In this document: positions 1,592 through 20,026 of the stretch, piece by piece
Position numbering within the stretch: position 1 is the stretch's first letter
Layout of the letters: every line of letters starts with the position of its first letter
Source: an uncultured Elusimicrobium sp.
GTDB taxonomy: Bacteria > Elusimicrobiota > Elusimicrobia > Elusimicrobiales > Elusimicrobiaceae
NCBI GenBank assembly: GCA_902797165.1
Contig: CADBRU010000002.1
Location: forward strand, 1 to 64,000
DNA: 64,000 bases
Reading direction: 5' to 3'
The notes under the pieces: model-generated
The model's database searches: none
What the model saw: only the letters and a program-made list of their open reading frames with translations
Told to the model about the DNA's origin: nothing
Program-made: the position numbers and the translations under genes

Positions 1592-1620
1592 TTGCATTTT
1601 GAAAAAAATTGTTGTATTAT
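1592..1620 (+). promoter_or_regulatory. Sigma-70-type promoter of the histone-like gene
   Basis: TTGCAT (1592-1597), a 17-bp spacer and TATTAT (1615-1620). It lies about 40 bp upstream of the ATG at 1660, next to the curved A-tract region. Confidence 0.6.
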
Positions 1621-1659
1621 TTTTATGAGGTTAATCTTATTATCTCAGGAGATAAAAAA

Positions 1660-1863
1660 ATGGCTGTAAAGAAAACTGTAAAAAAAGTAGCCGCCAAAAA
1701 ACCGGCTAAAAAAGTAGCCAAAAAAGTGGCTAAAAAAGTAACCAAAAAAGTAGCGAAAAAACCGGCTAAAAAAGTAGCCAAAAAAGTAGCGAAAAAACCG
1801 GCCAAAAAAGTAGCGAAAAAAGTAGCGAAAAAACCGGCCAAAAAAGTAGCAAAAAAGAAATAA
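1660..1863 (+). CDS. Small histone H1-like Lys/Ala-rich protein
   Basis: A 67-aa protein composed almost wholly of Lys, Ala, Val and Pro in AKKPAKKVAKKV-type repeats, like the C-terminal tail of eukaryotic H1 and bacterial Hc1/AlgP-type proteins. It probably binds nucleic acid non-specifically. An upstream in-frame ATG at 1609 would lie ahead of the -10 box, whereas the ATG at 1660 follows a TCAGGAGA ribosome site, so 1660 is the start. The coding DNA contains tandem 36-bp repeats. Similar Lys-rich tails end RsfS and Lon in this window. A strong terminator follows, so it is monocistronic. Confidence 0.8.
   Translation: MAVKKTVKKVAAKKPAKKVAKKVAKKVTKKVAKKPAKKVAKKVAKKPAKKVAKKVAKKPAKKVAKKK
1753..1860 (+). 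repeat. Three tandem 36-bp repeats inside the histone-like gene
   Basis: Three consecutive 36-bp units (1753-1788, 1789-1824, 1825-1860) each begin GCGAAAAAACCGGC and encode a 12-residue AKKPAKKV-containing block. They differ at only a few bases, mostly in the last unit. They keep the reading frame, so gain or loss of a unit would change protein length by 12 residues. Confidence 0.85.
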
Positions 1864-1880
1864 TTTGATGTTGCAACAAA

Positions 1881-1908
1881 AAACCGCTCCGAAAGGGGCG
1901 GTTTTTTT
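1881..1908 (+). terminator. Intrinsic terminator of the histone-like gene
   Basis: Stem ACCGCTCC/GGGGCGGT with a GAAA tetraloop, followed by seven T. It also lies between this gene and the converging alpha-2-macroglobulin gene. Confidence 0.85.
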
Positions 1909-1922
1909 GTGGTGTGTGAAAT

Positions 1923-4900
1923 TTATTTCTTTACGTCTAACACATTGGCTGCGGTATGCGCGCTAAACTCGGGCGCGTACATAGATTGCAATTGCGCGGG
2001 CAAAGCGTGATAGGTCCCTTGCAAAGAAGGGCGCAAGGTGTAGCGCAAGGTGTAGGTGCCGGCGGGTACGCGGTCAAAGAAGAAATTGGTTTGACCGTCG
2101 CGTATTTCGGTGTAATAAGACAATGCATTCCACGTCCAGCCGCTGGTCAGCACGGTGTTTTCAAAACCGGCGGGTTTGGGATCGGCCAGTAACACAAATT
2201 CAAAAGCAGCCGATGCATTTAACGTGAGTTGCACTTCCACTTCCGCTCCCACCGGGATTTCTTCTCCGACTTGTAACTGCCGCACTTTTTCACGTCCCTC
2301 TTCATTGTATTTGAGCAAATAGCGGCGCGAAACATTGAGCACACCGGGCTGCGAAGCGGCCGCGTTTGCCGTGGTATAAACAGCATCCAAGGTTACAAAC
2401 CCGGTCAGCCCGCCGCGTTTGGTTACTTGGGCAGTGTAATATTGCGGATTTACATTTTGTGCTTCTTTGGTCCAAGTCAGCGGGCTACTAAATTCCATGG
2501 GCTCAAAATTTACGGTTTTATGTTCATCACCCCACTCGATAATATATTGTGCGGGATCATCTATAAGTCCTTTGCGCTGCATATATTCAAGCAGTGTATA
2601 AACCGCTTGTGCGGCGGCTGTAGTGTCACGCCATTGTTGGGCTTTGCGGTTAAATAAAATCCATTTAAGTAAATCGGCGGCTTTGTCCGATTCCGGGCGG
2701 ATTTCAAGCAAAGTGCGCAGCGTAGCCGTTTGGGTCAAAAGCGTGTCGTTGTACCATAACCAACTTTGCGCTTCTGGTGCAAAATAAGCCCCCGTTACCG
2801 GGTCGGTTTTCATGCGCGCTAATACCAAGTCCAAATAATTTTGGGCTTTGGTGTTTTGCCCTAACCGATGATAAGCGGCGGCCGCATAGGTTTGACCTAA
2901 GGCCGTCATATAATCACTATGGGCATCGGCATAATCCAACCATTTTTTGACGGGTGCATTTTTAATTTCTTTCCATGTTTGCGGATACGCCGTAAACACA
3001 TAAGCACTGTACAATGCATAAGATACCGCCGAAACGGAGGGGGAAGATTCTTGCAAGTTCTTCTCAATGCGCGGGGCTAACCAAGCAAGGGCCTTTTTGG
3101 CGGAGTCTTGTGAAATTTGCCCACCGTAGCGTAAAATTTGCGCGTAAGAAGCCAAAATGCTTAATGTGATATATTCACTGGGTTGACCGCCCGGCATCCA
3201 CGTAAAACCGCCCGAAGATGTTTGGTATTTCTTGAGTTGTTTTTCTAAGTTATCGCGGGTGGAGGCTACCATTTTGGGGTTGAAAATATCCGTCAGGAAA
3301 TCTGCGCGCGAAGCACCTCCGCGGGAGAGTTGCAACCACGGAGTCTCTTCCAGTAAAAGTAAGCGGGCGGGATCGGTGTTATTCCACGCGGGAACTTGTG
3401 TGTTGCGCCGCGGCAATTTCTTAACCGCATTTTGTAAAAGCGGATAAGTTTGATAGAACGCATTGAGTATGGAAAGCGGCACATAGCGGTTTGTAATACT
3501 CAGCGCGTCATTATATCCGGGACGTAAAAGTTGCGGCATAGTATTGAGCACGCTTAAGAATAAACTGGGATCTACCCGCAGTGTTACTTCAGATACTTGG
3601 CGGGTATTGTCTGCGGTGAGCAGATTTTCCAAACGTAAAGTTTGACTACCGGTTTCTAAAGCGGCGGTGGTGCTTTCCGCGATACGTTCTTTGGCGGGCA
3701 AAATAGGAATTTGGCGGCTTTCCGCATCGGTGTTTTGTCCGCTGCGTACGGTAGCGGTTACGGTGGCAACGCCCACTCCCGGAGCAACGGTAAGCGGCCA
3801 TGTAACGGCTGTATTTCCGTTAGCGGGGACCGTTACGGTTTGAGTTAATTTTTCAAGTCCGAACGCGGCGGCGGCGTTTTTACCGTCTAACAAGAAGTCT
3901 AAAGTGACTTGCGTGGTAATTTTTTTGTCCGTTACATTGGTTACTTGCGCAACCAAAGTGCTCCGGTCCGTTTCGCGCCAAAAACGCGGCAGAGAGAGGC
4001 GCACCATGACATCTTTGCGGGTGACTGTTTGCGCGGTAAAGGTGCCGATATTGGCATCTTTAGTAAAAGCAAGTGCTTGCACGTTCCAACCGGTTAAACT
4101 TTGCGGCATGGTAAAATTAACTTTTCCTTTGCCGCCGGTAATGGGGAGCAAGGCATTAAAATACGCCGTCTCGGAAAAGTCCGTACGGGGGGTAACTTCG
4201 GCATTATTTGCTCCGTCCTCTTTGGCATCGGACGCAATACCGCGGGTAGGGAGAGCACTTTCTTCCATGCCCATTATCATATCCATAGCGTCATTTGTGA
4301 CGGCAGATTTTGCGGCTCTAGGAGCGGCACTTCTGACGGCCATTTGTACTACGGCACCTTTTGCCATTCCCAAACTATAACGATATCCCATGAAACGCAT
4401 TTCTAAATTGATTTGCGGCATTTGCGGTTCTGATACCTCTTTATAAATGTCGGGCAGTTCAGACAAATTTGAGGAATAGGCAGTATAGAAACTATTTGTT
4501 AGTGAGGTTGCTAAATTACCAATAGGATAGAAATTATCCAGTCCAAATACTTGTTTAATAGCGGCATAATAATCTAATGATTTATCATATACACGCACGG
4601 TAGCTTGTCCGTTGAGCGGGGCACCGGTTGCATTGGTTAGCGTGATAGGCCAGTTGACCTTTTGACCGGGTTTAACGGCTTGCGGTACTGTTACGTTTAG
4701 GTTGAGTGCTTTATTATCATGCGGAACGGTAAGGTAAGTATCTTCTTGATACATTTTCCAATTGCTAGCACCGAACCAACGCAGTCCCACGCCGCCGCGC
4801 CATTCATTTTCAATCGGCAATGTATAAATGCTTACACCGCTTTCTATTTGATCTCTTTTGGCTAAAAAGTTACTATCCTGATAGACTTCTATATATTTGG

Positions 4901-7775
4901 GTCCGATTAACTGACTATTACCGATTAAAATTTTGGCTTGATTGCCCGGATAGTAAGTTTTATATTGGGCAATAGCCACGGAGGGCAAAGCCAGTTTGCT
5001 TTGCGGTGCAGCAACAAAGAAAACAAATTCCGCCTCCTCTGCATTTTTGGCAGATAATTTGAGTTTATAGATACCTTCCGGCAAAGCGGGCAGTTGTAAA
5101 ACGGTTTCTTCTTTATCAAAAGAGAAAGTTTGTTTGGAAATGCTACGCAGTACTTTGTTATCTTTATACACATTTTCAAACGAATTATTTTCTTTAGTAG
5201 CAGTTTTGGGTAATGTGTTTTCCAGTTCTATGATTTCTGCGGTAAATTTGCCGCTTACGGGTTGGCTGTTTACATCTAATAATTTCACGCGGGCCAAGGT
5301 GGCGGTTGTATTAGCATCGTAAAATCCTTGGTCAAAAGAAGCCGCAAAGAAAGCCTCTTTTTCGCTGGCTTTATAGGTTTGCGAGGCATCAATACTGCGC
5401 CCGGAATCGTCGCGCACGGATACTTTCACATCAAAACTGTACGGGCGGTTTTTTTGCTCGCCGGGTTGCGGGGTGAAAGCAATGTCAAAAGTACCGTCCT
5501 TGCGGGTTTTTGTTTTACCCTGTGCAATTTGTTTTGATTCATAGGCGGACGGCCACCACCAGCAGAAAGGCAAGCGGTGCAGTTGACGTGTAATAGTATA
5601 TTCCACTTCAGCATTCTCAAGCGGAGCGCCGAAATAATAGAGGGCTTTGCCGGAAACGGTAGTTTCTTTATTATATTGCAAAGTACCGACCGGGTTTAAG
5701 GTTACTTCATATTCGGGGCGTTTATATTCTTCTACCTTAAAAGAAGAGTGTCTTGTATACGTGCGTCTACTAGATTTATAAGAAACCTCAATGTGATAGT
5801 TTCCGAGCAGACCCGTTTGCGGTAAAGTAAATTGGGTTTGGGCGGTTCCGTAAGCGTTTAGAAAAAGATTTTGCTCAAATGCTTTTTCATAGTTGGCATC
5901 TCGTACCAGTATTTTGACCGGTGTTTTTTCAGGTAGCGTTTTCCAACCGCGTCCGGCTTCTTCAAAACCATATACCGCTATTTGTACGGTTTGTCCGGGA
6001 CGGTAAATAGCACGGTCAGTTTCCGTGTAGAAGTTGATAGGGGCGCTCGGATAGTACGAGAATGTGATAGCATCTCTCAGTAAAGCGGTACTATTATTTT
6101 TGGTGGCTTTTGGTGTGATTTGGTAATACTTGGGATTATATAGATGTATTTCCCGTGCTAAAGCCAAAAAGCCTTTGTCATTTGTTTTTGCAGATACAAT
6201 CGGACTCTGCCATCCGGTAAAATAGGCAATGTTTGTGTCGGGTTCCGGTTGGCCTGTTTTTAAATTAACGGTATAGATACGAAATACATTGGGTTTAAAA
6301 GTACGGTCTTGGCTAGTATGATATTTGGCCGGATCGTCTTCAATACCGGTGGTAACAAACATAGCCAGTTCCGTTGCATTTAAAACGATTACTTCAATTT
6401 CTGTTTTTTCCGGATCAAAACTACTATCGTAGGCAACGGCTACGGCATAAAAGCCGGGTTCTAACGTGGGCAAAGCCAGCGTGGTATCCGCATACCCATA
6501 AGGTTTTTCATACGATACGGGTTTGACCAATTTGTGTATAGGATTTTTCTTGAGTAATTGCGGAATTTGATCAGAATCGATTCTGGTTAAATGAGCCCAA
6601 GAGGCAGCACGTTTTTCATTATTTAAAGTCAATAAATCTGATTCGCTGAGTTTGTAAATGCGAGCATAAATATTGGAACGATTTCGAATTTGGATGGACA
6701 ATTGCGTATGGGCCGGATCTTGAAGAGGAGAAGCAGTTTGCAAATTTAAAACAGGTTGACGAATACCGGCGGCCAAATTTGCGCACGATTGAACATAATA
6801 ACTCTCTTGCAGATTTTTGTCTGCCCAGTTGCATACATTGACGGCTTGTTCATATTGTTTATTCTCATTAAGCATTTCGGCGGCTTTGTATGCAGCATAA
6901 CTTTTACCATAGTCTGCGTTGACGGGGCGTAAGGTGCTAAGCAGTTTATTCCACCAATTTAATTTGGGTTGTATATAGCCGGATAATTGCTCTAACAGTT
7001 CGATGGCTTTGTTGCGCTCAGCGTCTTTATCTTCAAAAGTAAAACTGTCTTGATGGTCAAAGGGTAATGTGATGCGGTCTGCCTGCCAAATAATGCGGGC
7101 ATCTTCGCGGTTTGTACCACCCAAAGTGGCGGCTTCGGTCAATACGTAGAGCCATTTTTGTATATTTAAATCTTTAGTATCTTTGGCTTTATAATCTAAG
7201 GTTAATATGTCGGCAGTGCGTAAAGGATGTGCGGGAGCAGACTTGACTAAATATTCTCTCCATTTCAAAACCACAAAATCAAACAAGGTGGGAATGGCTT
7301 TGGTGTCTGTGTCTTTGACGTCTAAAACGAGGGTTTCTTTCTCAATAGGAGCGTAAATCAAATAAGAGCGCAAAGACCATAGTGTTTCCATGCTCTGATT
7401 GATTTTGTCGGCCCATTGCTCTTTACTTAAATTCTCAAAAGAGGCATCTTCTTCATCGGCATGATTTAAGACAGGACGATAGATGTTTTTAACTCTGTCT
7501 GCGGTTTGAACGCGGTATAATAAAAAGCGTGCTTTCCACAAAGGATCTTCGGGGAGGGGAGTGGAATAGGCCGTTTTGGCGGCGTTCATATATTCATCCA
7601 GCATATATTGACTGCGGATAACACCTAATTGGGCTGTATATAAATCGTCTCCCTTGGCAGTTTTGACTTGTTCTTGGTAATTGGCAAGTTCTTTGGCATA
7701 ATCGTGTGGTTGCTCTTCTTGCGCCATTAAAGATAAAGGTAATAATAAAACGAGCAGTAAAAGAAGTTTTTTCAT
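1923..7775 (-). CDS. Alpha-2-macroglobulin-like protein lacking the thioester
   Basis: A 1950-aa exported protein (signal peptide MKKLLLLLVLLLPLSLMAQ). A helical N-terminal region of about 500 residues is followed by an MG2-type domain near residue 580 (YTETDRAIYRPGQ), further macroglobulin strands, an A2M domain near 1220 (SLTGWNVQALAFTKD) and an alpha-toroid with GGFTWMPGG and SEYITLSILA near 1530. At the place where thioester-bearing members have CxEQ before the conserved RYVPL, this protein reads GYNDALSITNRYVPL near residue 1420, so the Cys and Gln are gone. Bacterial members are thought to trap proteases in the periplasm; without a thioester it resembles the YfaS subgroup. No pbpC gene is adjacent. 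Confidence 0.9.
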   Translation of the reverse strand: MKKLLLLLVLLLPLSLMAQEEQPHDYAKELANYQEQVKTAKGDDLYTAQLGVIRSQYMLDEYMNAAKTAYSTPLPEDPLWKARFLLYRVQTADRVKNIYRPVLNHADEEDASFENLSKEQWADKINQSMETLWSLRSYLIYAPIEKETLVLDVKDTDTKAIPTLFDFVVLKWREYLVKSAPAHPLRTADILTLDYKAKDTKDLNIQKWLYVLTEAATLGGTNREDARIIWQADRITLPFDHQDSFTFEDKDAERNKAIELLEQLSGYIQPKLNWWNKLLSTLRPVNADYGKSYAAYKAAEMLNENKQYEQAVNVCNWADKNLQESYYVQSCANLAAGIRQPVLNLQTASPLQDPAHTQLSIQIRNRSNIYARIYKLSESDLLTLNNEKRAASWAHLTRIDSDQIPQLLKKNPIHKLVKPVSYEKPYGYADTTLALPTLEPGFYAVAVAYDSSFDPEKTEIEVIVLNATELAMFVTTGIEDDPAKYHTSQDRTFKPNVFRIYTVNLKTGQPEPDTNIAYFTGWQSPIVSAKTNDKGFLALAREIHLYNPKYYQITPKATKNNSTALLRDAITFSYYPSAPINFYTETDRAIYRPGQTVQIAVYGFEEAGRGWKTLPEKTPVKILVRDANYEKAFEQNLFLNAYGTAQTQFTLPQTGLLGNYHIEVSYKSSRRTYTRHSSFKVEEYKRPEYEVTLNPVGTLQYNKETTVSGKALYYFGAPLENAEVEYTITRQLHRLPFCWWWPSAYESKQIAQGKTKTRKDGTFDIAFTPQPGEQKNRPYSFDVKVSVRDDSGRSIDASQTYKASEKEAFFAASFDQGFYDANTTATLARVKLLDVNSQPVSGKFTAEIIELENTLPKTATKENNSFENVYKDNKVLRSISKQTFSFDKEETVLQLPALPEGIYKLKLSAKNAEEAEFVFFVAAPQSKLALPSVAIAQYKTYYPGNQAKILIGNSQLIGPKYIEVYQDSNFLAKRDQIESGVSIYTLPIENEWRGGVGLRWFGASNWKMYQEDTYLTVPHDNKALNLNVTVPQAVKPGQKVNWPITLTNATGAPLNGQATVRVYDKSLDYYAAIKQVFGLDNFYPIGNLATSLTNSFYTAYSSNLSELPDIYKEVSEPQMPQINLEMRFMGYRYSLGMAKGAVVQMAVRSAAPRAAKSAVTNDAMDMIMGMEESALPTRGIASDAKEDGANNAEVTPRTDFSETAYFNALLPITGGKGKVNFTMPQSLTGWNVQALAFTKDANIGTFTAQTVTRKDVMVRLSLPRFWRETDRSTLVAQVTNVTDKKITTQVTLDFLLDGKNAAAAFGLEKLTQTVTVPANGNTAVTWPLTVAPGVGVATVTATVRSGQNTDAESRQIPILPAKERIAESTTAALETGSQTLRLENLLTADNTRQVSEVTLRVDPSLFLSVLNTMPQLLRPGYNDALSITNRYVPLSILNAFYQTYPLLQNAVKKLPRRNTQVPAWNNTDPARLLLLEETPWLQLSRGGASRADFLTDIFNPKMVASTRDNLEKQLKKYQTSSGGFTWMPGGQPSEYITLSILASYAQILRYGGQISQDSAKKALAWLAPRIEKNLQESSPSVSAVSYALYSAYVFTAYPQTWKEIKNAPVKKWLDYADAHSDYMTALGQTYAAAAYHRLGQNTKAQNYLDLVLARMKTDPVTGAYFAPEAQSWLWYNDTLLTQTATLRTLLEIRPESDKAADLLKWILFNRKAQQWRDTTAAAQAVYTLLEYMQRKGLIDDPAQYIIEWGDEHKTVNFEPMEFSSPLTWTKEAQNVNPQYYTAQVTKRGGLTGFVTLDAVYTTANAAASQPGVLNVSRRYLLKYNEEGREKVRQLQVGEEIPVGAEVEVQLTLNASAAFEFVLLADPKPAGFENTVLTSGWTWNALSYYTEIRDGQTNFFFDRVPAGTYTLRYTLRPSLQGTYHALPAQLQSMYAPEFSAHTAANVLDVKK

Positions 7776-7860
7776 ATATTCTCCTGTGTGTGCAGATATA
7801 GAAAATCCCTTTGCTATTTACAAAGAGATTTCCTAATAATTTTCAATACGGCTGACAAAC

Positions 7861-9453
7861 TTACATCTTTTCCGGTGCGCTAACACCTAAAAATTCTAAG
7901 CCTTTGCGGATTCGTTCCGCCACGCGTTGGCAAATAAGCAGGCGCGAGCGTGTGAGCGGAATATTATTTTCATCAATGACACGGCAACTGTCATAGAAAG
8001 AGTGAAATAATCCGGCCAGTTCCATTAAATAAGTAGGTAAATGGTGCGGGCTTAAATCGCGCAAGCAGTTCTGCAAAACAGGCTTAAACCAAACTAATTT
8101 AAGCAGCAGAGCCCTTTCTTGTGCAGATAACGGAGTGATAATCTCACCCGGTTCTAATCCTTTTTCGGTAGCCGCAGCAAAAATGGAATGAATACGCGCA
8201 TGCACATATTGCACGTAGAACACTGGGTTTTCATTGGATTGTTTCTTGGCCAGTTGAATATCAAAGGTCATTTGAGCGTTCGGCGTGCGGCTGGCAAAGA
8301 AAAAGCGGCAGGCATCGGCCCCTACATCATCAATTAGTTCGCGCAGTGTAATAAATTTACCGGCGCGTTTAGACATTTTGACTTGTTCGCCATTGTCCAG
8401 CAAATGTACCAACTGATGGATGATAGGTACAAAAGATTTTTCTTCTTTACCCAAAGCATGTACGGCGGCTTTCATGCGGGGAACATAGCCATGATGGTCT
8501 GCCCCTAAAATATCAATAAGTTGTGTATAACCGCGGTCATATTTATTTTTGTGATAGGCTATATCTGCCAAAAAGTAAGTGGGCCGTCCGTCGGTGCGCA
8601 CTAATACGCGGTCTTTATCATCTTTGGCTTCTTTGTCTTGCGTGGAACCGAACCACACGGCATCATCTTTTTTATAAGCATAACCGTTATCTTCCAAAGA
8701 TTTTAAGGCTTTTTGTACGGCACCTTCTTTGTGCAGTTCCGATTCTCTAAACCACCGGGTAAATTGCACGCGGAAGGCATTCATGTCATCCTGTTGGGTT
8801 TTGATGAGATATTCCATGGCCCAACGTCCGTAATCTTCTTCTTTCAAATCTTTGGGTGCTATCTTGGCCATATCGATTAAATAAGAACCGTGATATCCGT
8901 TTTCGGGCGGTTCTTTACCTTCGATACGTGCTTTAAGAGATTGCGCCAGCATTTGCGCTTGATTGCCGGCATCATTGACATAATATTCACTGTCGCACGG
9001 ATACCCTAAAGCCCGATAAATGCGTACCAAACTGTCTCCCAAGGCGGCGCCGCGTCCGGAAGCCATATGCAAAGGCCCCGTTGGGTTGGCGGAAACAAAT
9101 TCAATTAAAATTTTATGTTTAGAGCCGTAAGAGGCATCACTTCTTTTAATGCGTCTATCCAGTGCGGCTACGGTAATAAAATTGTCATCCAATTTTAAGT
9201 TAATAAAACCGGGGGTAGCAGGCTCTGCATCTGCAATTCCGTTTACTTCCTTGAGTAAAGCCGCTGCGGTTTTGGCAATTTCCAACGGGTTTTTGCGCAA
9301 TACTTTAGCCGCAGACATTGCCCAACTTAAGGATAAGTCCGCTCCTGTATGCTCGGGGGCGGGGGCAAACTCGACTGCGGGCAAAACCGCACCTTGAAAT
9401 TCCGGAGAGTTAGAGAGTTTTAATTCAATATCTTTTTTGAGGTTTTCAAACAT
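7861..9453 (-). CDS. argS: Arginyl-tRNA synthetase
   Basis: A 530-aa class I synthetase that charges tRNA-Arg. The N-terminal Add-1 tRNA-binding domain is short. The HIGH-type motif is HMASG (residues 129-133, in PTGPLHMASGRG) and the KMSKS-type motif is KMSKR near residue 360. The C-terminal DALR anticodon-binding domain ends in GLEFLGVSAPEKM. Length is slightly below the usual 550-580. It starts 12 bp after the stop of rsfS, with an AAGGAAA ribosome site, so the two are probably cotranscribed. Confidence 0.95.
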   Translation of the reverse strand: MFENLKKDIELKLSNSPEFQGAVLPAVEFAPAPEHTGADLSLSWAMSAAKVLRKNPLEIAKTAAALLKEVNGIADAEPATPGFINLKLDDNFITVAALDRRIKRSDASYGSKHKILIEFVSANPTGPLHMASGRGAALGDSLVRIYRALGYPCDSEYYVNDAGNQAQMLAQSLKARIEGKEPPENGYHGSYLIDMAKIAPKDLKEEDYGRWAMEYLIKTQQDDMNAFRVQFTRWFRESELHKEGAVQKALKSLEDNGYAYKKDDAVWFGSTQDKEAKDDKDRVLVRTDGRPTYFLADIAYHKNKYDRGYTQLIDILGADHHGYVPRMKAAVHALGKEEKSFVPIIHQLVHLLDNGEQVKMSKRAGKFITLRELIDDVGADACRFFFASRTPNAQMTFDIQLAKKQSNENPVFYVQYVHARIHSIFAAATEKGLEPGEIITPLSAQERALLLKLVWFKPVLQNCLRDLSPHHLPTYLMELAGLFHSFYDSCRVIDENNIPLTRSRLLICQRVAERIRKGLEFLGVSAPEKM

Positions 9454-9465
9454 TTAATTATTTCC

Positions 9466-9963
9466 TTATTTAGCAGATTTTTTAACTGTTTTCTTAGTGG
9501 TTTTCTTTTTAGTGGTTGCTTTTTTGGCAGAAACTTTTTTGGCAACCGATTTTTTAACAGTTTTTTTAGCAACCGTTTTCTTAGCAGTTGCTTTTTTAAC
9601 GGTCGTCTTTTTAGTTGTTTTCTTCTTATAGTCGATTTCTTTACCGAAATCAAAAATTTTATCTAAGGCGTAATAGTCACGCGCTTCGGGTGTCATGATA
9701 TGCACGAGAAAAGAACCGTAATCGGACACGCGCCAAATCATACTGTCTGCGCCGTCTCGGTTGGTTTTATAGACTCCGATTTTCTTTAACTGGGTGCTGA
9801 TTTCATCTTCGACAGCCTCTAAATGCGGTTTGGAGGTTACCGTGGCCAACACGATATATTCACATAAGGAAGATAATCCTTGTAAATCCAATACTTTGAT
9901 GTTTTCGGCTTTCTTGGCATCGGCATAACGCGCCGCCAGTACTGCAATTTCTTTGTTTTGCAT
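9466..9963 (-). CDS. rsfS: Ribosomal silencing factor RsfS with Lys-rich tail
   Basis: A 165-aa protein. Residues 1-110 match the RsfS/Iojap (DUF143) fold: VLDLQGLSSLCEYIVLAT, then DGADSMIWRVSDYGSFLVHI and RDYYALDKIF. RsfS binds ribosomal protein uL14 and blocks subunit joining in starvation. The last 50-odd residues are Lys, Thr and Ala repeats (KKTVKKSVAKK) absent from ordinary RsfS and like the histone-like protein at 1660. The ATG at 9963 is chosen because GAGGTG lies just upstream; the longer ORF start at 9990 has no ribosome site. It is first in an operon with argS. Confidence 0.9.
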   Translation of the reverse strand: MQNKEIAVLAARYADAKKAENIKVLDLQGLSSLCEYIVLATVTSKPHLEAVEDEISTQLKKIGVYKTNRDGADSMIWRVSDYGSFLVHIMTPEARDYYALDKIFDFGKEIDYKKKTTKKTTVKKATAKKTVAKKTVKKSVAKKVSAKKATTKKKTTKKTVKKSAK

Positions 9964-10026
9964 AATGCACCTCAGTTTTGTATATACCATTAGAATAGCA
10001 TTTTTAGACGGTTTTTACTATCCGAT

Positions 10027-10066
10027 TTGTAGATAATGGGCAAGAATTTTATATACTAATTTTATG
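10027..10066 (+). promoter_or_regulatory. Promoter of rsmI giving a leaderless or nearly leaderless start
   Basis: TTGTAG (10027-10032), a 17-bp spacer and TATATA (10050-10055), with an overlapping TATACT at 10052-10057 that ends six bases before the ATG at 10064. No ribosome site precedes the ATG. Confidence 0.5.
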
Positions 10067-11378: not shown

Positions 11379-11394
11379 ATATAATACATATATG
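11358..11394 (+). promoter_or_regulatory. Promoter of the histidine kinase gene, leaderless arrangement
   Basis: TTGCAC (11358-11363), a 16-bp spacer and a perfect TATAAT (11380-11385). The -10 box ends six bases before the ATG at 11392, so the predicted transcript starts on the start codon. It overlaps the end of the preceding gene. Confidence 0.6.
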
Positions 11395-12351: not shown

Positions 12352-12364
12352 ATATAGACTAAAT

Positions 12365-12404
12365 TAAAAAGAAGAGCGGAACCTTTGGTTCCGCTTTTCT
12401 TTTA
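12365..12404. terminator. Bidirectional intrinsic terminator
   Basis: A 9-bp stem AGCGGAACC/GGTTCCGCT with a TTT loop, flanked by A-rich and T-rich runs. It serves both the histidine kinase gene and the converging LytR_C gene, whose last codons overlap it. Confidence 0.8.
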
Positions 12405-13325
12405 CCAAGGTTGTTTGAAATCTTGCCCGATAATAATGCGCGCATCAAAAATGGCAGTGCCTTGTTTTTCCGATACAATTTCACTATTGACGCCGATAGC
12501 GGTGCTGAGTTGTTTGACCTGTACGCGCCGTCCGGTTAAGTCAATAATACGGGTATAAGGTTGGACTTCACCGGGGTAATTGTCATAGCGGAACACATCT
12601 ACTTGTAAAAGTCCTTTTTGATTTTGTTCGCGTAAATATTGCGTCAAATCAAAAGCCGCTCCCTTAACTCCCGAAGCATTTAATATTTCCACTAGAAGCG
12701 GGCGGTCATCCATGGCCAGCGGGGCTTTGTCCTCTACGGGGGGCAAAATAGTATCCGGCTCTACTTGTTTGGCAGAAGACTTTTGTTTCTTTTTTGATTC
12801 GTTCAAATTTTTAACCGTAAAATCGGTCAGTTCTAATCTTGCTGCGTCCAGCGCAAGTAAAATAAATTCCGGCGGCGTTACATTAGTGCGTTTGTCATGC
12901 AATGCTTGCAAATAATCCCATACATTTTCAAAAGCAATAAACGGTTTATTGCGCCAAACGGTTAAATTGGTGCGGGCATTTTCCCAATAGTCCTCTTTCT
13001 TTAATTTTTTAGGTAAATAATAACGAACAGGGTCGGCAGAAATGCCGGCTGTTTTAAGTGCATCGGTAGCGTTTTCAAGAGGATTCTGCGGAGTTTTCCG
13101 GCGGGCTACCGTGGTTAAAATTACTTTGTGACTTTGCGGATTATAAGTGGCCACCATGGCCGGTTGTGTCAAAACCGCGATATGCAGCGAAGTATCTTCC
13201 CGATTGACTAAAGCGCGTACAATCGGATCTTTATGTTGCACCCATGCCGCGCCCAGCGTGGTCAGAAGTAGGAGCAAAACTAATAAATAACCTATCAAGC
13301 GGTATGTTTTACGAGGTGATTCCAT
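12402..13325 (-). CDS. Membrane-anchored LytR_C domain protein
   Basis: A 307-aa protein with an N-terminal membrane anchor (residues 9-30), a central region of about 150 residues that resembles a degraded LCP-like fold, a Lys/Ser linker, and a C-terminal LytR_C domain (VEILNASGVKGAAFDLTQYL, ending in ARIIIGQDF). LytR_C domains often follow LytR-CpsA-Psr domains in envelope proteins, but the catalytic Arg and Asp residues of LCP phosphotransferases are not evident. It is last in a four-gene operon and overlaps the nadD-HD gene by 31 nt. The role is unknown, probably at the envelope. Confidence 0.65.
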   Translation of the reverse strand: MESPRKTYRLIGYLLVLLLLLTTLGAAWVQHKDPIVRALVNREDTSLHIAVLTQPAMVATYNPQSHKVILTTVARRKTPQNPLENATDALKTAGISADPVRYYLPKKLKKEDYWENARTNLTVWRNKPFIAFENVWDYLQALHDKRTNVTPPEFILLALDAARLELTDFTVKNLNESKKKQKSSAKQVEPDTILPPVEDKAPLAMDDRPLLVEILNASGVKGAAFDLTQYLREQNQKGLLQVDVFRYDNYPGEVQPYTRIIDLTGRRVQVKQLSTAIGVNSEIVSEKQGTAIFDARIIIGQDFKQPW

Positions 13326-14428
13326 AATTCAATCCCGGTCGGACAAAGCCATTTTTGACTGTCAATGGTAAACCATAGTTTGCGGTTGGCTGCATACAAA
13401 AGTGCTTTTTCCAAATCTTGCATGGCAAGCGTGCGGATCACAAAAGCATCTTTGTATTTGCGATCTTTAGATGAAATATCCGCCACGAATAAAATTTTAC
13501 TTAAGGTCGTCATTTCCAAACTGCCCAGTGTATGTTCGGAAATGGCATTTAAAATTTCGGGGTCGTTAAGCCCAAACAATTCCTGTGCTAGTTCGGCCGA
13601 TACAAACGAGTGTAATAAAGCCGGTTCACAATGGCAAATATCTTCAAAATAAGGTATTTTTAAGTGATGTTTTTTACAAAAAGAAATGAGTTCCTCTGCC
13701 GAAAATCCTTTGCCGGCATCGTGGAAAATACCCGCCTGTACGGCTTTTTGTATAGGTACTTCGTAAATATCACTCAGCACCGCACATAATTCGGCTACCT
13801 TAATGGAGTGTAAATAGCGGTTTGGTTTTAAATGTGCGCGTAACCAACGATGTTGGTCTAATCCGTGCAAATCATTTTTGATAATAATATCCGCTACAGA
13901 CGAGGGGACTTTATCGGTCGGTATCTCTCCGCTAGACAAAATATGGGCGCGTACCCGGGTAGAGGACATCTTGGGAAATTGCCCCGGCAGAGAAATATGT
14001 TTAAAAGTAACTTTATGCTCCGGAAAACCCTTGCGGCGTCCGGCTACTATGGTAGCGTTGGCAAAGATATAATCGGAATTGTTCCAATCATGTAAATCGT
14101 TTAGGCAATCCGTGCCTACCAGTAAATAAATTTCCGGATGGTCGTAGCGTTTTTGCAAATATTGTACCAGTTGGTAAGAATAAGTCTTGCCGCCGCGTTG
14201 TAACTCATAATCATCAAAAATTAAATTCTTGCCAAGCCCTCCGAAAGCCGCCCGTGCCATTTCCATACGTAATTGAAACGGCGTGGGAGATTTGGCTTTG
14301 AACGGAGAATGATACACCGGCACCACATGCGTTACGTCCGGTTTAATAACGGATAAGGCTTTTTTAAGCATGGCCACATGGCCTTTATGAACCGGGTCAA
14401 AACTGCCCCCGAAAACGAGTACTTTCAT
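13295..14428 (-). CDS. nadD: Nicotinate-nucleotide adenylyltransferase fused to an HD hydrolase
   Basis: A 377-aa two-domain protein. Residues 1-190 are NadD, with the nucleotidyltransferase motif FGGSFDPVHKGH near the start and SSTRVR near 165; it makes deamido-NAD from NaMN. Residues 195-377 form an HD domain (RYLHSIKVAELC, then FHDAGKG and HCEPALLHSFVSAELA) like YqeK, a family with Ap4A hydrolase members. The start at 14428 is chosen because it forms an ATGA overlap with the upstream gene and follows AGGAAA. In Firmicutes nadD and yqeK are separate neighbours, so this is a fusion of the pair. Confidence 0.9.
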   Translation of the reverse strand: MKVLVFGGSFDPVHKGHVAMLKKALSVIKPDVTHVVPVYHSPFKAKSPTPFQLRMEMARAAFGGLGKNLIFDDYELQRGGKTYSYQLVQYLQKRYDHPEIYLLVGTDCLNDLHDWNNSDYIFANATIVAGRRKGFPEHKVTFKHISLPGQFPKMSSTRVRAHILSSGEIPTDKVPSSVADIIIKNDLHGLDQHRWLRAHLKPNRYLHSIKVAELCAVLSDIYEVPIQKAVQAGIFHDAGKGFSAEELISFCKKHHLKIPYFEDICHCEPALLHSFVSAELAQELFGLNDPEILNAISEHTLGSLEMTTLSKILFVADISSKDRKYKDAFVIRTLAMQDLEKALLYAANRKLWFTIDSQKWLCPTGIELWNHLVKHTA

Positions 14429-15729
14429 GAATGTTTTCCTAAAATTTGTTTGGCAAGATTTTGTCCTTGCAGTAAACTGCGTTCCATGAAGGAATATTCC
14501 CACAAACCATATCGACCCGCACAGAAACAGTTATATCGTTTTAGCCATTGCAAAATATGCCGCTTAGCGGTGCTTCTTTTGAAATTATAAACGGCATAAG
14601 CCGGAGAAAGAGTCCGCCAAAAAGAACATATTATTTTATCTTGCTTTTCTATTATACCTTTTTGCAATAAGGCCTTGCGAAAGGCTTTTTCGGCTTGTTT
14701 CAAATCAGTTATTTTTTGCGTACTTTCTATGTAAAAAGAGGTGGTACCTTTCGGGGCCAAATTTGGGGAGAAAGCACTTTGCATACCGACACGGAAAAAC
14801 GGTATTTCCGGTTGCGGAAAATAAATCCAGTGAAAAGTGGGAACTTTACGATTAACAGCCATTTGCCATACATGTACGGTAGTGTGTTTAAGTTGCCGCG
14901 CGGCGCGATATACCGCGTCGGGTACATTTTCACATGTTTTCACGAAATGAGGTAAAGGTAATGTATTAATCAGTTTTTCAAAATAAACAGTTTTTCCGTT
15001 AATAAGTGCTATGTGTTTTTTAAGATCAATCTTTTGCACGCTGGCATTGAGCCAAGTGTTTGGAACGTGTTTAGAGAGTGCCTCTGCCAGTGCCGCACAA
15101 CCGCCGCGGCGCGGATAATAGAAATAAGCATTGTATCCGAGGGCGGCAGATTTCTTTTTTGCACCGTTGGTAATTTGTTTTAAATTGGGCGTCGGCACAA
15201 AAGTATCGCACCAATCCCAAGTCATTTGTTTGGGCTTGGTTTGCCATAACTTTGTGTTATAAGGTTTTAAAAAATATTGATAAATGCCCTTGCCGAAGGC
15301 TTGCAAAAACCATTCTTCTAGATTTTTTGGTTTTTTGCTCCTGACACAAGCGGCCTGTTGCACACCGGCGAGGCATTGCGTGCGGATTTTCTTGGGAAGT
15401 GCCCATAAATTGGCTTGAAAAGGAAAGGGGACTCTTTGGCCCTGAAAATCAATAAAAGCCTGACGTTTATGACGTATTAAGTTGCCTTTGAGCAGACGGC
15501 GCACCAACGATATTGCATAAGGGTGATGCAAATGTAATAAATGCCCGGAGAAATCAAAGGTAAAATCTCCTTTTGTTTCACTGGCAGAAAGTCCGCCGAA
15601 AAATGAATTTTTTTCAACCAGTAAATAATCGGTATGTCCGAGTTGTTCCAAATGATAAGCAACGCTAAGACCTGTCAACCCACCGCCTAAAATAAGAGTA
15701 TGGACATGAAGTATTTCTGTCTGTTTCAT
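14425..15729 (-). CDS. FAD-dependent amine-oxidase-fold flavoprotein
   Basis: A 434-aa protein with an N-terminal dinucleotide-binding fold (LILGGGLTGLSVAYHLEQLG, then LLVEKNSFFGGLSAS) typical of the UDP-galactopyranose mutase, protoporphyrinogen oxidase and amine oxidase superfamily. The C-terminus ends in the FAD-contacting CAGRYGLWEYSFMERSLLQG. The start at 15729 overlaps the WecA-like gene by 4 nt (ATGA); the longer frame lies inside that gene. Company with a polyprenyl-phosphate sugar transferase suggests a sugar or glycolipid substrate, but this is inference. The motifs do not single out GlfU. Confidence 0.75.
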   Translation of the reverse strand: MKQTEILHVHTLILGGGLTGLSVAYHLEQLGHTDYLLVEKNSFFGGLSASETKGDFTFDFSGHLLHLHHPYAISLVRRLLKGNLIRHKRQAFIDFQGQRVPFPFQANLWALPKKIRTQCLAGVQQAACVRSKKPKNLEEWFLQAFGKGIYQYFLKPYNTKLWQTKPKQMTWDWCDTFVPTPNLKQITNGAKKKSAALGYNAYFYYPRRGGCAALAEALSKHVPNTWLNASVQKIDLKKHIALINGKTVYFEKLINTLPLPHFVKTCENVPDAVYRAARQLKHTTVHVWQMAVNRKVPTFHWIYFPQPEIPFFRVGMQSAFSPNLAPKGTTSFYIESTQKITDLKQAEKAFRKALLQKGIIEKQDKIICSFWRTLSPAYAVYNFKRSTAKRHILQWLKRYNCFCAGRYGLWEYSFMERSLLQGQNLAKQILGKHS

Positions 15730-16754
15730 TGGGGCATCCTGATTCGTGCAAGATAAAAGGCGGCCATTACCATACTTAGGACAACCAGTCCACACAAAGT
15801 TAATGCCCATTGCGCCGTCACTTGTGTCATGATAAAAGCAAGCACATTAAATACAAAACCTATTACTAAAAAAATCACCAATACCTGACGGGTATTAAAA
15901 CCGATTTGTTTAAGCCGCAGCGCCGCATGGTCATTGCTGCCGCGTAACGGATTTTTGTGTTTTAACAAACGGATAAACACTACAAAAGTGGTATCAAAAA
16001 TAGGAACGGCCAAAATGAGCAAGGGGGCCAAGAAACCCCAATTGGAATGTTCACTGTACCGGGTTGCCATGGCCAAAGCGGCTAAGGTAAATCCGAGCAG
16101 AGTGCTACCGCTGTCTCCCAAAAAGGTTTTGAAACGTGTGGAGTGATTGTAAGGCCAAAATCCTAAACAAGTTCCCAAGATGGCACACGCACAAAAATTA
16201 ACATAAATTTGTTCGGAAGGTAAAGCAATAAGCCAAAGCCCCAAGGCGGCTATTAAGGCTTGCGAAACACATAGTCCATCGGAAATATCCAATAAATTGA
16301 ACGCATTTGTAATACCGATTACCCACAAAAAAGTAAGCAGATACGACAATTGAGGTGAGTCAAATAAAGTAATATGTACTCCGTACACAATCAGGCAGGC
16401 TGTGGCTAATCCTTGCACGGCCAATTTAATTGCTACACCGACTCCTTTGGGTTTGCGTAAATCATCCACAAGGCCTAAGAGAAAAATTAAAGTAGCCCCG
16501 TACAAAATACCGCGCAGGCTATGCAAAGTTCCGGTCGGGAAATTGGTGTGCAGCCGAATAAAAATCAAACTGATAGCCAATCCGCATAAAATGGCACAGC
16601 CTCCCAGTAAAGGGACCGAATAAGCATGTTTTTTAAGCGGAGTAGGCGTGTCTAAGAATAAAAAGCCGACCATACGATGTAAAAGCGGCAATACGGCTGC
16701 GGTTATTAGTCCGGCCAGTAATATGGTTACAAAATAAAGTATAGTCGTCTGCAT
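15726..16754 (-). CDS. Polyprenyl-phosphate sugar-1-phosphate transferase (WecA/MraY superfamily)
   Basis: A 342-aa protein with about ten membrane segments. Conserved cytoplasmic motifs of the family are visible: GLVDDLRKPKGVGV (Asp-rich, Mg2+ binding), NAFNLLDISDGL, FLGDSGSTLLGF and a C-terminal loop RGSNDHAALRL in place of the usual HLHH. It should load a sugar phosphate onto undecaprenyl phosphate and so start a glycan such as O-antigen or teichoic-like polymer. It heads a four-gene operon, with a TATTAT-containing promoter region shared with the divergent lipoprotein gene. Confidence 0.88.
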   Translation of the reverse strand: MQTTILYFVTILLAGLITAAVLPLLHRMVGFLFLDTPTPLKKHAYSVPLLGGCAILCGLAISLIFIRLHTNFPTGTLHSLRGILYGATLIFLLGLVDDLRKPKGVGVAIKLAVQGLATACLIVYGVHITLFDSPQLSYLLTFLWVIGITNAFNLLDISDGLCVSQALIAALGLWLIALPSEQIYVNFCACAILGTCLGFWPYNHSTRFKTFLGDSGSTLLGFTLAALAMATRYSEHSNWGFLAPLLILAVPIFDTTFVVFIRLLKHKNPLRGSNDHAALRLKQIGFNTRQVLVIFLVIGFVFNVLAFIMTQVTAQWALTLCGLVVLSMVMAAFYLARIRMPQ

Positions 16755-16768
16755 AGCATTTATTATTC

Positions 16769-16774
16769 TATAAT
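16769..16774 (+). promoter_or_regulatory. -10 box of the lipoprotein gene
   Basis: TATAAT about 33 bp upstream of the ATG at 16807; no good -35 box is visible. The same AT-rich gap must also hold the promoter of the divergent WecA-like operon. Confidence 0.4.
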
Positions 16775-16806
16775 ATTAATAAGAAAGTTGCGTAAACCGG
16801 TTAAAA

Positions 16807-17430
16807 ATGATGCGAAAATATTGCTTACTAGGAATTTTAATTTGGGGACTGAGCGGGTGTGCTACCTTGCATACAGCCGACCGGTCTGCTTGCGCGCAAA
16901 ATCACCGGCTGCCCTCCTTTTTTGCCCAAGGGGAACAATTGGCTGCTTTTCGTCTGCAAGCACAGGCAAAGCAATACGGGTTAGAAGGCATTTTGCAAAT
17001 CAAAAAACAAGCAGAGGAAACCTACGAAGTTACGCTATTCTCAAATGTAGGTGCCTACCGTTTACTACAGGGTACTTTGACGCGTGAAGGCATGCAATAC
17101 AGTTATTTAGCACCGGGGGCAGATCAAAGTGCGGTACAGGTAAGAGTGGAGCGCTTTTTAACTTTACTGCTGATTCCGTCTTTATCGCAGGGAAGTTGTA
17201 AGGTAAAAAAAGAGAGTGTACAAATCAGTTACAAACACCCTATCAAAAAATATGAGTATGCGTTTGGCGCGTCTTATCCGCAACAAGCCATCGGGCCGAA
17301 GCCTTTCGGCAAAACCTATCTGACCTTTGATGAGTATCAACCCTACGGTCAAAATCAACTGCCGCATACCTTGTGGTATCGCGACGGAAAAATATATGTT
17401 TCACTTACCTTACTGCGCTTGAAAAAATAA
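16807..17430 (+). CDS. Predicted outer-membrane lipoprotein of unknown function
   Basis: A 207-aa protein with a signal peptide and lipobox LSGC (lipidated Cys at residue 18). The mature part is rich in beta strands: a GLEGILQIKK stretch, then EVTLFSNVGAYRLLQGTL and VERFLTLLLIP. The pattern loosely recalls LolB-like barrels, but no diagnostic motif is present. An equally possible start is the second Met. It is transcribed alone, between the divergent WecA-like operon and lon. The function is not recognised. Confidence 0.7.
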   Translation: MMRKYCLLGILIWGLSGCATLHTADRSACAQNHRLPSFFAQGEQLAAFRLQAQAKQYGLEGILQIKKQAEETYEVTLFSNVGAYRLLQGTLTREGMQYSYLAPGADQSAVQVRVERFLTLLLIPSLSQGSCKVKKESVQISYKHPIKKYEYAFGASYPQQAIGPKPFGKTYLTFDEYQPYGQNQLPHTLWYRDGKIYVSLTLLRLKK

Positions 17431-17451
17431 AACAGCGGCCACAATTTAAAA

Positions 17452-17478
17452 TTAGCAATCTAAAAAAGCGCTTGCTAA
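17452..17478. promoter_or_regulatory. CIRCE-like operator (HrcA binding site)
   Basis: TTAGCAATC, nine bases, then GCTTGCTAA. This matches 15 of 18 positions of the CIRCE element (TTAGCACTC-N9-GAGTGCTAA) with the exact 9-bp spacing. It sits inside a perfect 11-bp inverted repeat (17448-17458 and 17472-17482) and covers the -35 box of the lon promoter, so an HrcA-type repressor would block lon transcription until heat shock. Confidence 0.65.
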
Positions 17479-17500
17479 TTTTGAATAAATTTGTTATACT
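17472..17500 (+). promoter_or_regulatory. Sigma-70-type promoter of lon
   Basis: TTGCTA (17472-17477), a 17-bp spacer and TATACT (17495-17500), about 73 bp upstream of the lon ATG. The -35 box overlaps the right half of the CIRCE-like operator. Confidence 0.7.
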
Positions 17501-17572
17501 TTTCTTGTCTAATCTATTAAATGCGTTGAAAAAATGAGGGAAAAATTTTAGTCTGATAAGACGGAGTAAATT

Positions 17573-20026
17573 ATGCCAGAAATTACACAAAAAACACTTT
17601 CTTTGCCTACGGTTGTGCCCGCGGTGGCCATACGGGATGTGGTGATGTTCCCGGGGATGAATTTGCCCTTGTCGGTAGATCGTGCCAAATCGGTAGTGGC
17701 TATCGAACTTGCGTTAGAAGCGCCGGGTAAATATGTGCTTGCCTTGTCTCAAAAAGCGGCCGAAATAGAAGACCCCCAAGAAAATGAAATTTTTCATTTC
17801 GGGGTTTTGAGTAAAATTACGCAATCACTTAAAATGCCCGACGGTACCATTAAAGTATTTTTGCAAGGGTTAGTCCGCGCTAAAGTGCAAAAACTGGAAT
17901 TAAACCCGGCCACCGGCACTTGGTTTGCTACGGTAGATTATATTGAGGAGCAAGAAGACAATAGCCCCGTGGTTCAGGCACTCATGCGCAAAGTACTAGA
18001 CGAATTTGACCATTATGCCCGCGTATCGCACCGTATTGCGGTAGAAGGGGTGTCTTTCTTGCGGCAAATCGAAGATCCGTCTAAACTAGCCGATACGATT
18101 GCTTCCAATATGATGGTAAAGACGGAGCAACGGCAGAAAATTTTGGAAACGGCGCCCGTAAAAGCACGTTTGGAAGAAATTTTAAAACTGATTACCAGTG
18201 AAGTGGAAATCTTGGGCTTGGAAGAGAAAATTCATTCCAAAGTGCGCGCGCAAATTGAGAAAAACCAAAAAGAATATTATCTCAATGAGCAGATGAAAGC
18301 CATCCAAAAGGAACTGCGCCAAAAAGATGATTTTCAAAAAGAGTTAGACGATATTCGTGCGAAAATTAAGAAAAACGGACTGCCTCCGGCCGCCAAAGAA
18401 GCCGCGGAAAAAGAAGTGGACCGCTTGCAAAAAATGCAGCCGTTTTCGCCGGAAGCAACGGTGTCGCGCACGTTTTTAGATTGGCTTGTAAATATGCCGT
18501 GGAACATTACCACTAAAGATGTGTTGGATATCAAAGAAGCCAAAAAGATTTTAGATGAAGACCACTTCGGTCTAGATAAACCCAAAGAACGTATTTTGGA
18601 ATACATTGCCGTCAGTAAACTTACCGAAGGGCTGCGTGGACCGGTGCTGTGCTTTGTGGGGCCTCCGGGAGTCGGTAAGACTTCACTGGCTAAATCCATT
18701 GCACGTGCCATCGGACGCAAATTTGTGCGTATGTCACTGGGCGGAGTGCGTGATGAAAGTGAAATCCGCGGGCACCGCCGCACCTATATCGGCTCTATGC
18801 CGGGGCGCATTATTCAAGGTATCAGCAAAGCCAAAAGTGCCAACCCTGTATTTTTGTTAGACGAAATTGACAAAATGGGTTCGGACTGGCGCGGTGATCC
18901 GGCGGCGGCTCTATTGGAATTGTTAGATCCGGAGCAAAACAAAGATTTTGTGGATCACTTTTTAGATGTGCCGTATGACGTGTCTAAAGTGTTATTTATT
19001 ACGACGGCTAACTCACTGGGCAGTATCCCCAGTACCTTGCGTGACCGTTTAGAAATTATTGATTTCTCCGGCTATACCGAGTATGAAAAACATGAAATAG
19101 CAGATCACTATTTGATTCCCAAACAAATGAAATTGCACGGATTAAAACCTGGTACGCTGGAAATTGCCAAAGAGGCCATTGCGCTGATGATGCGCGAATA
19201 TGTGCGCGAAGCCGGCGTGCGTAATTTAGAGCGCGAAATTGGCACCCTCTGCCGCAAAGCCGCCAAACAATATGTGGAAAACGGCGGCAAAAAAATCAGC
19301 ATTACTGCCAAAAATCTACATGATTATTTAGGCGTACCCAAATATGCCAACTTTGCAACCGAAGAAAACGGAGTGGGCATTGCAACGGGTCTTGCGTGGA
19401 CGAGCGTGGGAGGGGAAACCCTGTCCATAGAAGCCACCAAAATACCGGGCAAGGGCGCGCTGATTTTGACGGGTATGCTAGGCAATGTAATGAAAGAATC
19501 TGTCCGCGCCGCGCTGACGTATGCGCGTAGTCGCGGGTTTGGCAAAAAGGTCAATTTTGACCGCACAGATTTTCATATTCACTTCCCCGAAGGTGCCGTG
19601 CCTAAAGACGGACCGTCTGCCGGTATTACCATTACTTCGGCGCTGGTGAGTTTGCTTTCCGGTTTGCCGGTGAAAAAGAAACTGGCCATGACTGGTGAGG
19701 TAACCATTACGGGGCGTGTACTTCCGGTGGGGGGCATTAAAGAGAAATTCCTAGCAGCCTACCGTGAAGGGGTAAAAACCATTTTGTTCCCGCATACCAA
19801 TGAAAAAGATGTGGCTGAACTGCCCGAAAAAGTGCGCAAAGAATTAACCCTTATTCCCGTTAAACACATGGATGAGGTATTGCCGCTTGCGCTAGAAGGG
19901 TATAAAGATGTGAAGGTAACCGTCAAAAAGGCGGTTAAGAAAAGCGCCAAAAAAGCAGTTAAGAAAACAGTGCGCAAAGCACCCAAGAAAGCAACTGCCA
20001 AAAAGTCCAAACGCAAACGGAAATGA
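17573..20026 (+). CDS. lon: ATP-dependent protease Lon with histone-like tail
   Basis: An 817-aa LonA. The LAN substrate-binding domain covers about residues 10-200, the AAA+ module has Walker A GPPGVGKT (363-370) and Walker [11 protein letters not shown], and the protease domain has the catalytic Ser in KDGPSAG (S682) and Lys in VGGIKEK (K723). Lon degrades damaged and regulatory proteins. About 35 extra residues follow the normal end ([15 protein letters not shown] through KKSKRKRK), very basic and like the tails of RsfS and the histone-like protein. A CIRCE-like operator lies on its promoter. It is monocistronic, with a terminator directly downstream. Confidence 0.97.

What the first reader, a model, noticed from the sequence alone, without database searches (positions are those of the whole stretch)
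1660..20026. Histone-H1-like Lys/Ala tails on three unrelated proteins
A free 67-aa Lys/Ala protein, the last 50-odd residues of RsfS and the last 35 residues of Lon share the same AKK/VKK repeat composition, within 20 kb. The tails lie outside the normal family lengths. They may target these proteins to nucleic acid, ribosomes or polyphosphate; Lon in E. coli is known to bind polyphosphate and then degrade ribosomal proteins, and RsfS acts on ribosomes, so a shared stress-targeting tail is plausible. The CYTH protein next door belongs to a family that handles polyphosphate-like substrates.
Basis: partly seen in the sequence, partly recalled or inferred. Interest (0 to 1): 0.62.

Follow-up and report, generated by a model that had tools for sequence, protein, structure and literature searches.

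The report
Lysine-alanine tails across a gut bacterium
A gut bacterium of the phylum Elusimicrobiota carries histone-H1-like lysine/alanine tails on about a dozen proteins, mostly ones that touch DNA, RNA or the ribosome, plus a small stand-alone protein made almost only of such repeats; evolution keeps these tails by composition rather than exact sequence, so they probably work as nucleic-acid grips, a device known elsewhere but not recorded for this set of proteins in the papers I could search.

Summary
In detail: a free 67-aa Lys/Ala protein (1660-1863), a 53-aa tail on RsfS and a ~40-aa tail on Lon. The tails are not a property of these three proteins. Function-blind searches of the 1.31-Mb genome add uS2, bL27, bS20, TrmD, a sigma-70 factor, an unnamed small protein (C-terminal tails), and IF2, biotin carboxyl carrier protein and PPDK (N-terminal). 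RsfS and Lon tails occur in every same-genus genome where the C-terminus could be read. Lengths vary, but composition and lysine positions are kept. RsfS tails span the order and also occur in the distant family f9 and in Nitrospira. The free gene is a conserved single-gene unit under strong purifying selection (up to 21 silent to 0 replacement changes). It belongs to an H1-like family with ACAKKACAKK cysteine modules that this genome has lost. Most likely the tails are disordered polycations that hold their carriers on rRNA or DNA, as lysine repeats do on Streptomyces TopA. The polyphosphate idea is not supported: no PPK1 or PPK2 in 37/37 same-genus genomes. A stress link is not supported either: most carriers are housekeeping, two are metabolic. 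The 20-kb clustering is not kept in relatives. New variant of a known kind.

The parts
1660..1863 (+). free 67-aa Lys/Ala/Val/Pro protein, H1-like; 36-bp tandem repeat inside (1708-1857); lacks the cysteine module of relatives
1591..1620 (+). sigma-70-like promoter of the free gene (TTTGCA - 18 - TATTAT), strongly conserved in relatives
   Evidence: a single consensus match is at chance level; conservation in 29 genomes is the evidence
1647..1651 (+). Shine-Dalgarno AGGAG of the free gene, in 29 of 29 orthologues
1884..1908 (+). intrinsic terminator of the free gene (CCGCTCC-GAAA-GGGGCGG then T run); a hairpin with different sequence sits at the same place in relatives
   Evidence: read by eye; the scanner did not list it
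9466..9990 (-). RsfS, ribosomal silencing factor (PF02410/TIGR00090)
9469..9627 (-). Lys/Thr/Ala/Val tail of RsfS, 53 aa
17573..20026 (+). Lon protease (TIGR00763)
19904..20023 (+). Lys/Ala/Val/Arg tail of Lon, about 40 aa

Best explanation
The tails are intrinsically disordered polycations of the histone-H1 C-terminal type, added in this lineage to the ends of a small set of proteins, most of which work on DNA, RNA or the ribosome. Each probably gives its carrier a non-specific electrostatic hold on nearby nucleic acid: RsfS and the ribosomal proteins on rRNA, TrmD on tRNA, the sigma factor and Lon on DNA. This would raise residence time and local concentration without changing the specific site. 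The free protein is the same polymer without a carrier domain and is probably a small, well-expressed nucleoid- or RNA-binding polycation. Shown: presence, distribution, disorder prediction for RsfS, conservation of composition, lysine positions and reading frame, and the free gene's own conserved expression signals. Inferred: binding to nucleic acid and its effect on the carriers.
For: Carriers found by codon patterns blind to function are mostly nucleic-acid/ribosome proteins against 9/30 random proteins: 8 of 10 classified carriers, binomial P about 0.002 at 30%. RsfS tails in 33 same-genus genomes: 64.5 +/- 9.7 aa, Lys+Arg 42.5 +/- 2.4%, 0.18 acidic residues per tail; in close pairs aligned lysines are mostly kept (31 kept/1 changed, 26/1) while A/T/V/P/S interchange; tail pN/pS 0.29 with pS 0.71. 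Codon usage in the three window tails is near that of the genome for Lys and Ala, and one or both other frames of each contain stops, so selection is on the peptide. The free gene: 21 synonymous, 0 nonsynonymous changes between L194 and L196, mean pS 0.51 against pN 0.09, only the residues A C K M P T V (plus I in two) in 29 orthologues, conserved promoter, leader, SD and a terminator. RsfS tails span the order, are short in family f7 and long again in family f9. AlphaFold: RsfS core pLDDT about 77-93, tail mostly under 50. Precedent: lysine repeats of Streptomyces TopA give processivity, with similar repeats on HrdB, Ku and HupS (PMC7398561); KPAA repeats of AlgP bind DNA (PMC9239181); lysine-rich low-complexity regions are enriched in prokaryotic DNA-binding proteins (PMC6821194).
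Against: No binding was measured. PPDK and the biotin carboxyl carrier protein carry N-terminal versions without any known nucleic-acid role. Most DNA/RNA proteins of the genome have no tail (4 Lys/Ala C-terminal tails among 438 sampled ORFs), so being a nucleic-acid protein does not predict a tail. Lon is only loosely a nucleic-acid protein. Conservation across the genus was checked for RsfS, Lon, the free protein and PPDK only.
Confidence: 0.62

Rival explanations
1. Neutral low-complexity growth: A-rich triplet repeats expand by slippage at gene ends and are tolerated because basic ends do little harm.
For: Tail lengths vary among species; the free gene of this genome has a 36-bp tandem repeat, 4.2 copies, 91% match; Lon tails are less constrained (pN/pS 0.45).
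Against: Tails never lost in the same-genus genomes that could be read for RsfS and Lon; lysine positions kept and almost no acidic residues; near-normal synonymous codon mix; free protein under strong purifying selection; carriers not random by function.
Confidence: 0.12
2. Polyphosphate targeting or lysine polyphosphorylation.
For: H1-like AlgP localises to polyP granules in Pseudomonas (PMC9239181); E. coli Lon binds polyP (own knowledge); a CYTH protein is next door.
Against: No PPK1 and no PPK2 in any of 37 same-genus genomes, and few in the sister family; tails lack the acidic/serine context of PASK motifs; the CYTH homologue was not found in the sister family.
Confidence: 0.05
3. Condensate or charge-buffer role: the tails and the free protein together drive coacervation with RNA or DNA and gather translation and transcription proteins, with PPDK and the biotin carrier drawn in as clients.
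For: Same polymer on proteins of several processes, plus a free version; explains the metabolic carriers.
Against: No direct evidence; only a small set of proteins is tagged.
Confidence: 0.13
4. Regulated tails: lysine acetylation switches nucleic-acid affinity on and off, as reported for mycobacterial HupB.
For: HupB and Ku lysine stretches are acetylated (PMC7398561); the genome holds a Sir2-type deacetylase (L285:12477-13193).
Against: No acetyltransferase was linked to the tails; Sir2 proteins are common; no modification data.
Confidence: 0.08

Closest known systems
Lysine repeats of Streptomyces TopA, HrdB, Ku, HupS (and mycobacterial HupB)
   Same: H1-like lysine repeats shared by several unrelated proteins of one genome, including a sigma factor
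   Different: There the named carriers are DNA-binding proteins in high-GC actinobacteria; here they include the ribosome silencing factor, Lon, ribosomal proteins, TrmD and two metabolic enzymes, in a gut lineage of another phylum
Histone H1-like Hc2 of Chlamydia and the Burkholderia/Bordetella relatives (PF07382, NF038052, NF038053)
   Same: Free proteins of short lysine-rich units that vary in number by duplication and deletion
   Different: The free protein scores below the curated cut-offs, has no arginine, is shorter, uses KKxA/KKxxA units, and most orthologues carry regular ACAKK cysteine units
AlgP and PhaF of Pseudomonas (KPAA repeats)
   Same: Long Lys/Ala/Pro disordered tail that binds DNA and tethers a partner
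   Different: KPAA units with single lysines rather than KK pairs; linked to polyP or PHA granules; PPK absent here
Lysine-rich low-complexity regions of prokaryotic proteins (IF-2, TopA, ribosomal proteins), PMC6821194
   Same: Same protein classes (IF-2, S2 and other ribosomal proteins), mostly C-terminal in ribosomal proteins; lysine-rich ones linked to nucleic-acid binding
   Different: That survey is global; RsfS and Lon did not appear in the passages I read

Membership tests
RsfS (PF02410/TIGR00090) | Profile score above curated cut-off over the whole domain | tested here: met
   87.6 bits against 21.6; 88.2 against 56.9; PDB RsfS chains match residues 10-122
RsfS (PF02410/TIGR00090) | Ordinary length, as in solved bacterial RsfS chains of 105-152 aa (not a strict family criterion) | tested here: not met
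   174 aa with 53-60 extra residues; this is the unusual part and does not affect membership by domain
Lon (TIGR00763) | Full LonA architecture above cut-off | tested here: met
   951.5 bits against 608; LON_substr_bdg, AAA, lid and Lon_C domains
Hc2 histone H1-like (PF07382/NF038052) | Score above curated cut-off | tested here: not met
   Window free protein: no match; an orthologue 26.9 bits against 40 in Pfam and 15.7 against 135 in NCBIfam
Hc2 histone H1-like (PF07382/NF038052) | DNA/RNA binding in vitro | not testable with these tools
   needs protein
Streptomyces-type lysine-repeat tails (a kind, not a homologous family) | Lysine-repeat terminal extensions shared by several unrelated nucleic-acid proteins of a genome | tested here: met
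Streptomyces-type lysine-repeat tails (a kind, not a homologous family) | Tail needed for tight or processive nucleic-acid binding | not testable with these tools
   needs truncation assays
PASK-type polyphosphorylated proteins | Acidic, serine- and lysine-rich target motif (own knowledge) | tested here: not met
   0.18 acidic residues per RsfS tail, none in the free protein
PASK-type polyphosphorylated proteins | A polyphosphate kinase in the cell | tested here: not met
   0 of 37 same-genus genomes for PF02503 and for PF03976; the window genome is 88.7% complete, several relatives 95-99%

The most novel reading that the evidence does not exclude
The free protein founds a new family of cysteine-patterned, arginine-poor linker-histone-like proteins in Elusimicrobiota. 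Its ACAKKACAKK units would link or sense metal or redox state while the KK units bind DNA or RNA, and the tails on housekeeping proteins would be the same polymer recruited to gather translation, transcription and two metabolic enzymes on nucleic acid.
Probability: 0.18. Interest if true: 0.68.

Novelty: new variant of a known kind. Interest (0 to 1): 0.5.

Why it matters
It shows a lineage that has put one cheap electrostatic module on many core proteins, with composition and lysine spacing conserved but not sequence. RsfS carries such tails in at least two distant groups of the phylum and in Nitrospira, which makes the tail of a ribosome-silencing factor a testable adaptation. A cultivated carrier exists: genome G090, whose single contig of 1,643,562 bases equals the published length of Elusimicrobium minutum Pei191 (PMC2613244), has a 92-aa RsfS tail.

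Tried and rejected
Polyphosphate: tested with PPK1 and PPK2 and rejected. Conserved gene cluster: rejected from positions in long-contig relatives. Slippage-only origin: rejected for RsfS and the free protein. Tail-bearing Nitrospira RsfS (L170, L171): real, but they may have been fetched by a tail peptide pattern, so they show occurrence and not frequency. Viral contigs: no exact match to the ACAKK DNA pattern. Structure of the unnamed 132-aa carrier from a single sequence: pLDDT 56, not used. A first version of the RsfS tail comparison kept only 3 genomes because of a strict boundary pattern and was replaced. Literature: no paper with both Elusimicrobi- and lysine-rich; a search for RsfS plus C-terminal extension listed none with a lysine tail by title or abstract.

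Full report
WHAT IS THERE. The three features are in the sequence as described. The free ORF 1660-1863 uses only M, A, V, K, T, P. RsfS (9466-9990, minus) matches PF02410 and TIGR00090 and then runs about 60 residues past the profile; Lon (17573-20026) matches TIGR00763 to residue 773 of 817. In a sample of 438 ORFs from 464 kb of the same genome (the window plus 20 stretches chosen without regard to the pattern hits), only five C-termini reach net charge 9 in 25 residues. They are these three, one further Lys/Ala tail, and one basic end of different make-up. So the tails are rare and real.

WHO CARRIES THEM. Codon patterns for KK-x-x-KK runs, blind to function, were searched in the whole genome and the places read. 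C-terminal carriers besides RsfS and Lon: uS2 (L048), bL27 (L051), bS20 (L029), TrmD (L028), a sigma-70 factor (L052) and an unnamed 132-aa protein (L160/L300). RecA ends in a short KKTAKK (L049). N-terminal carriers: IF2 (L026), biotin carboxyl carrier protein and pyruvate phosphate dikinase (L027). Families were confirmed with Pfam. Thirty random proteins of the genome gave 9 with a nucleic-acid or tRNA/DNA-linked family by my reading. Against that 30%, 8 of 10 classified carriers (P about 0.002), or 7 of 7 C-terminal ones (P about 0.0002), are so linked; without Lon, 7 of 10 and 6 of 7. PPDK and the biotin carrier are true exceptions, and the PPDK extension (MVKKTVKKAA...KKAVKYVYSFGAGK) is kept in the relatives read. 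The list is limited by the patterns and by a genome 88.7% complete.

CONSERVATION OF TAILS. In 36 same-genus relatives every RsfS and Lon whose C-terminus could be read has a tail. RsfS tails average 64.5 aa with Lys+Arg 42.5 +/- 2.4% and almost no acidic residues. Between close species the core differs at pN/pS 0.09 and the tail at 0.29, with aligned lysines mostly kept and A, T, V, P, S swapping (alignment of repeats favours lysine matches, so the lysine count is somewhat flattering). Lon tails are looser (0.45). Synonymous codon use in the three window tails is near that of the genome for Lys and Ala, and one or both of the other frames of each contain stops, so this is not just an open DNA repeat. 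In the sister family of the order, RsfS tails persist (21-100 aa) while Lon ends shrink to 11-27 aa. Across the phylum, RsfS ends are 2-31 aa in the other families read of the class and 0-27 aa in several distant families, but reach 25-123 aa in many members of family f9. Long lysine-rich RsfS tails therefore probably arose or expanded more than once, and also occur in Nitrospira (possible ascertainment bias noted).

THE FREE PROTEIN. It sits beside the CYTH gene in all 28 relatives where that gene was found. All 29 orthologues begin M[A/P]VKK and end in AKKK, with 64-117 residues from the alphabet A, C, K, M, P, T, V (two also have I). Pairs show 21 silent and 0 replacement changes, 23 and 1, 9 and 1; overall pS 0.51 and pN 0.09. 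A TTTGCA/TATTAT promoter, the leader GAGGTTAAAACTAATTGTCTTAGGAGA and a terminator hairpin of changing sequence are kept at the same places (the promoter match in this one sequence is at chance level, conservation is the argument). Of these 29, 28 carry two to six cysteines, mostly in ACAKK/KKAC units; the window genome has none and instead a 36-bp tandem repeat. One further relative (L326) also lacks cysteine. A profile search finds the family in the genus and, weakly, in the sister genus g12; family f9 has a protein with an N-terminal domain and a tail ending in KKACAKKGCAKK (L332). It scores below the cut-offs of Hc2 and Burkholderia H1-like models.

ORGANISM. The nearest named records are Elusimicrobiaceae/Elusimicrobiales metagenome-assembled genomes from yak rectum and reindeer.

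HOW IT MOST LIKELY WORKS. AlphaFold gives an RsfS core at pLDDT about 77-93 and a tail mostly below 50, with no secondary structure, in keeping with a disordered polycation. Precedents with measured function: lysine repeats of Streptomyces TopA (processivity), with similar repeats on HrdB, Ku and HupS (PMC7398561); KPAA repeats of AlgP (PMC9239181); lysine-rich regions enriched in DNA-binding proteins (PMC6821194). I infer an electrostatic hold on rRNA, tRNA or DNA. That step is not shown here.

WHAT FAILS. Polyphosphate: no PPK1 or PPK2 in 37 of 37 same-genus genomes, with the control genomes ringing. Stress set: carriers are mostly housekeeping. Gene cluster: positions in relatives with long contigs are scattered.

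VERDICT. It is a new variant of a known kind. The least expected piece is the cysteine-patterned free protein family, which the window genome itself hides by lacking the cysteines.

Noticed in passing
window 1660-1863; L173-L200, L306-L334: Orthologues of the free protein carry regular ACAKKACAKK cysteine units; the window genome and one relative (L326) lack them.
   Followed up: partly
L332 (minus strand, ORF from base 1171 of the reverse complement): A protein of family f9 with a duplicated N-terminal motif (GYLYFxDKNGDxSR) and a Lys/Ala tail with KKACAKKGCAKK.
   Followed up: no
window 1621-1651: The leader GAGGTTAAAACTAATTGTCTTAGGAGA before the free gene is nearly invariant in the genus, more than an SD needs; possible regulatory site.
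   Followed up: no
L027:560-3367 and 7912-8445: PPDK and biotin carboxyl carrier protein have N-terminal Lys/Ala extensions; the PPDK one is conserved in relatives.
   Followed up: partly
L170, L171: Nitrospira-type RsfS with PAKKAPAKKAP-like tails.
   Followed up: no
window 62195-62569: Bbp16-type phage protein, so the end of the window may lie in a prophage.
   Followed up: no
window 33414-33911, 50906-51421, 57704-58192: Several small proteins with type IV pilin N-terminal methylation motifs.
   Followed up: no
L285:12477-13193: Sir2-type deacetylase, of interest if tail lysines are acetylated.
   Followed up: no
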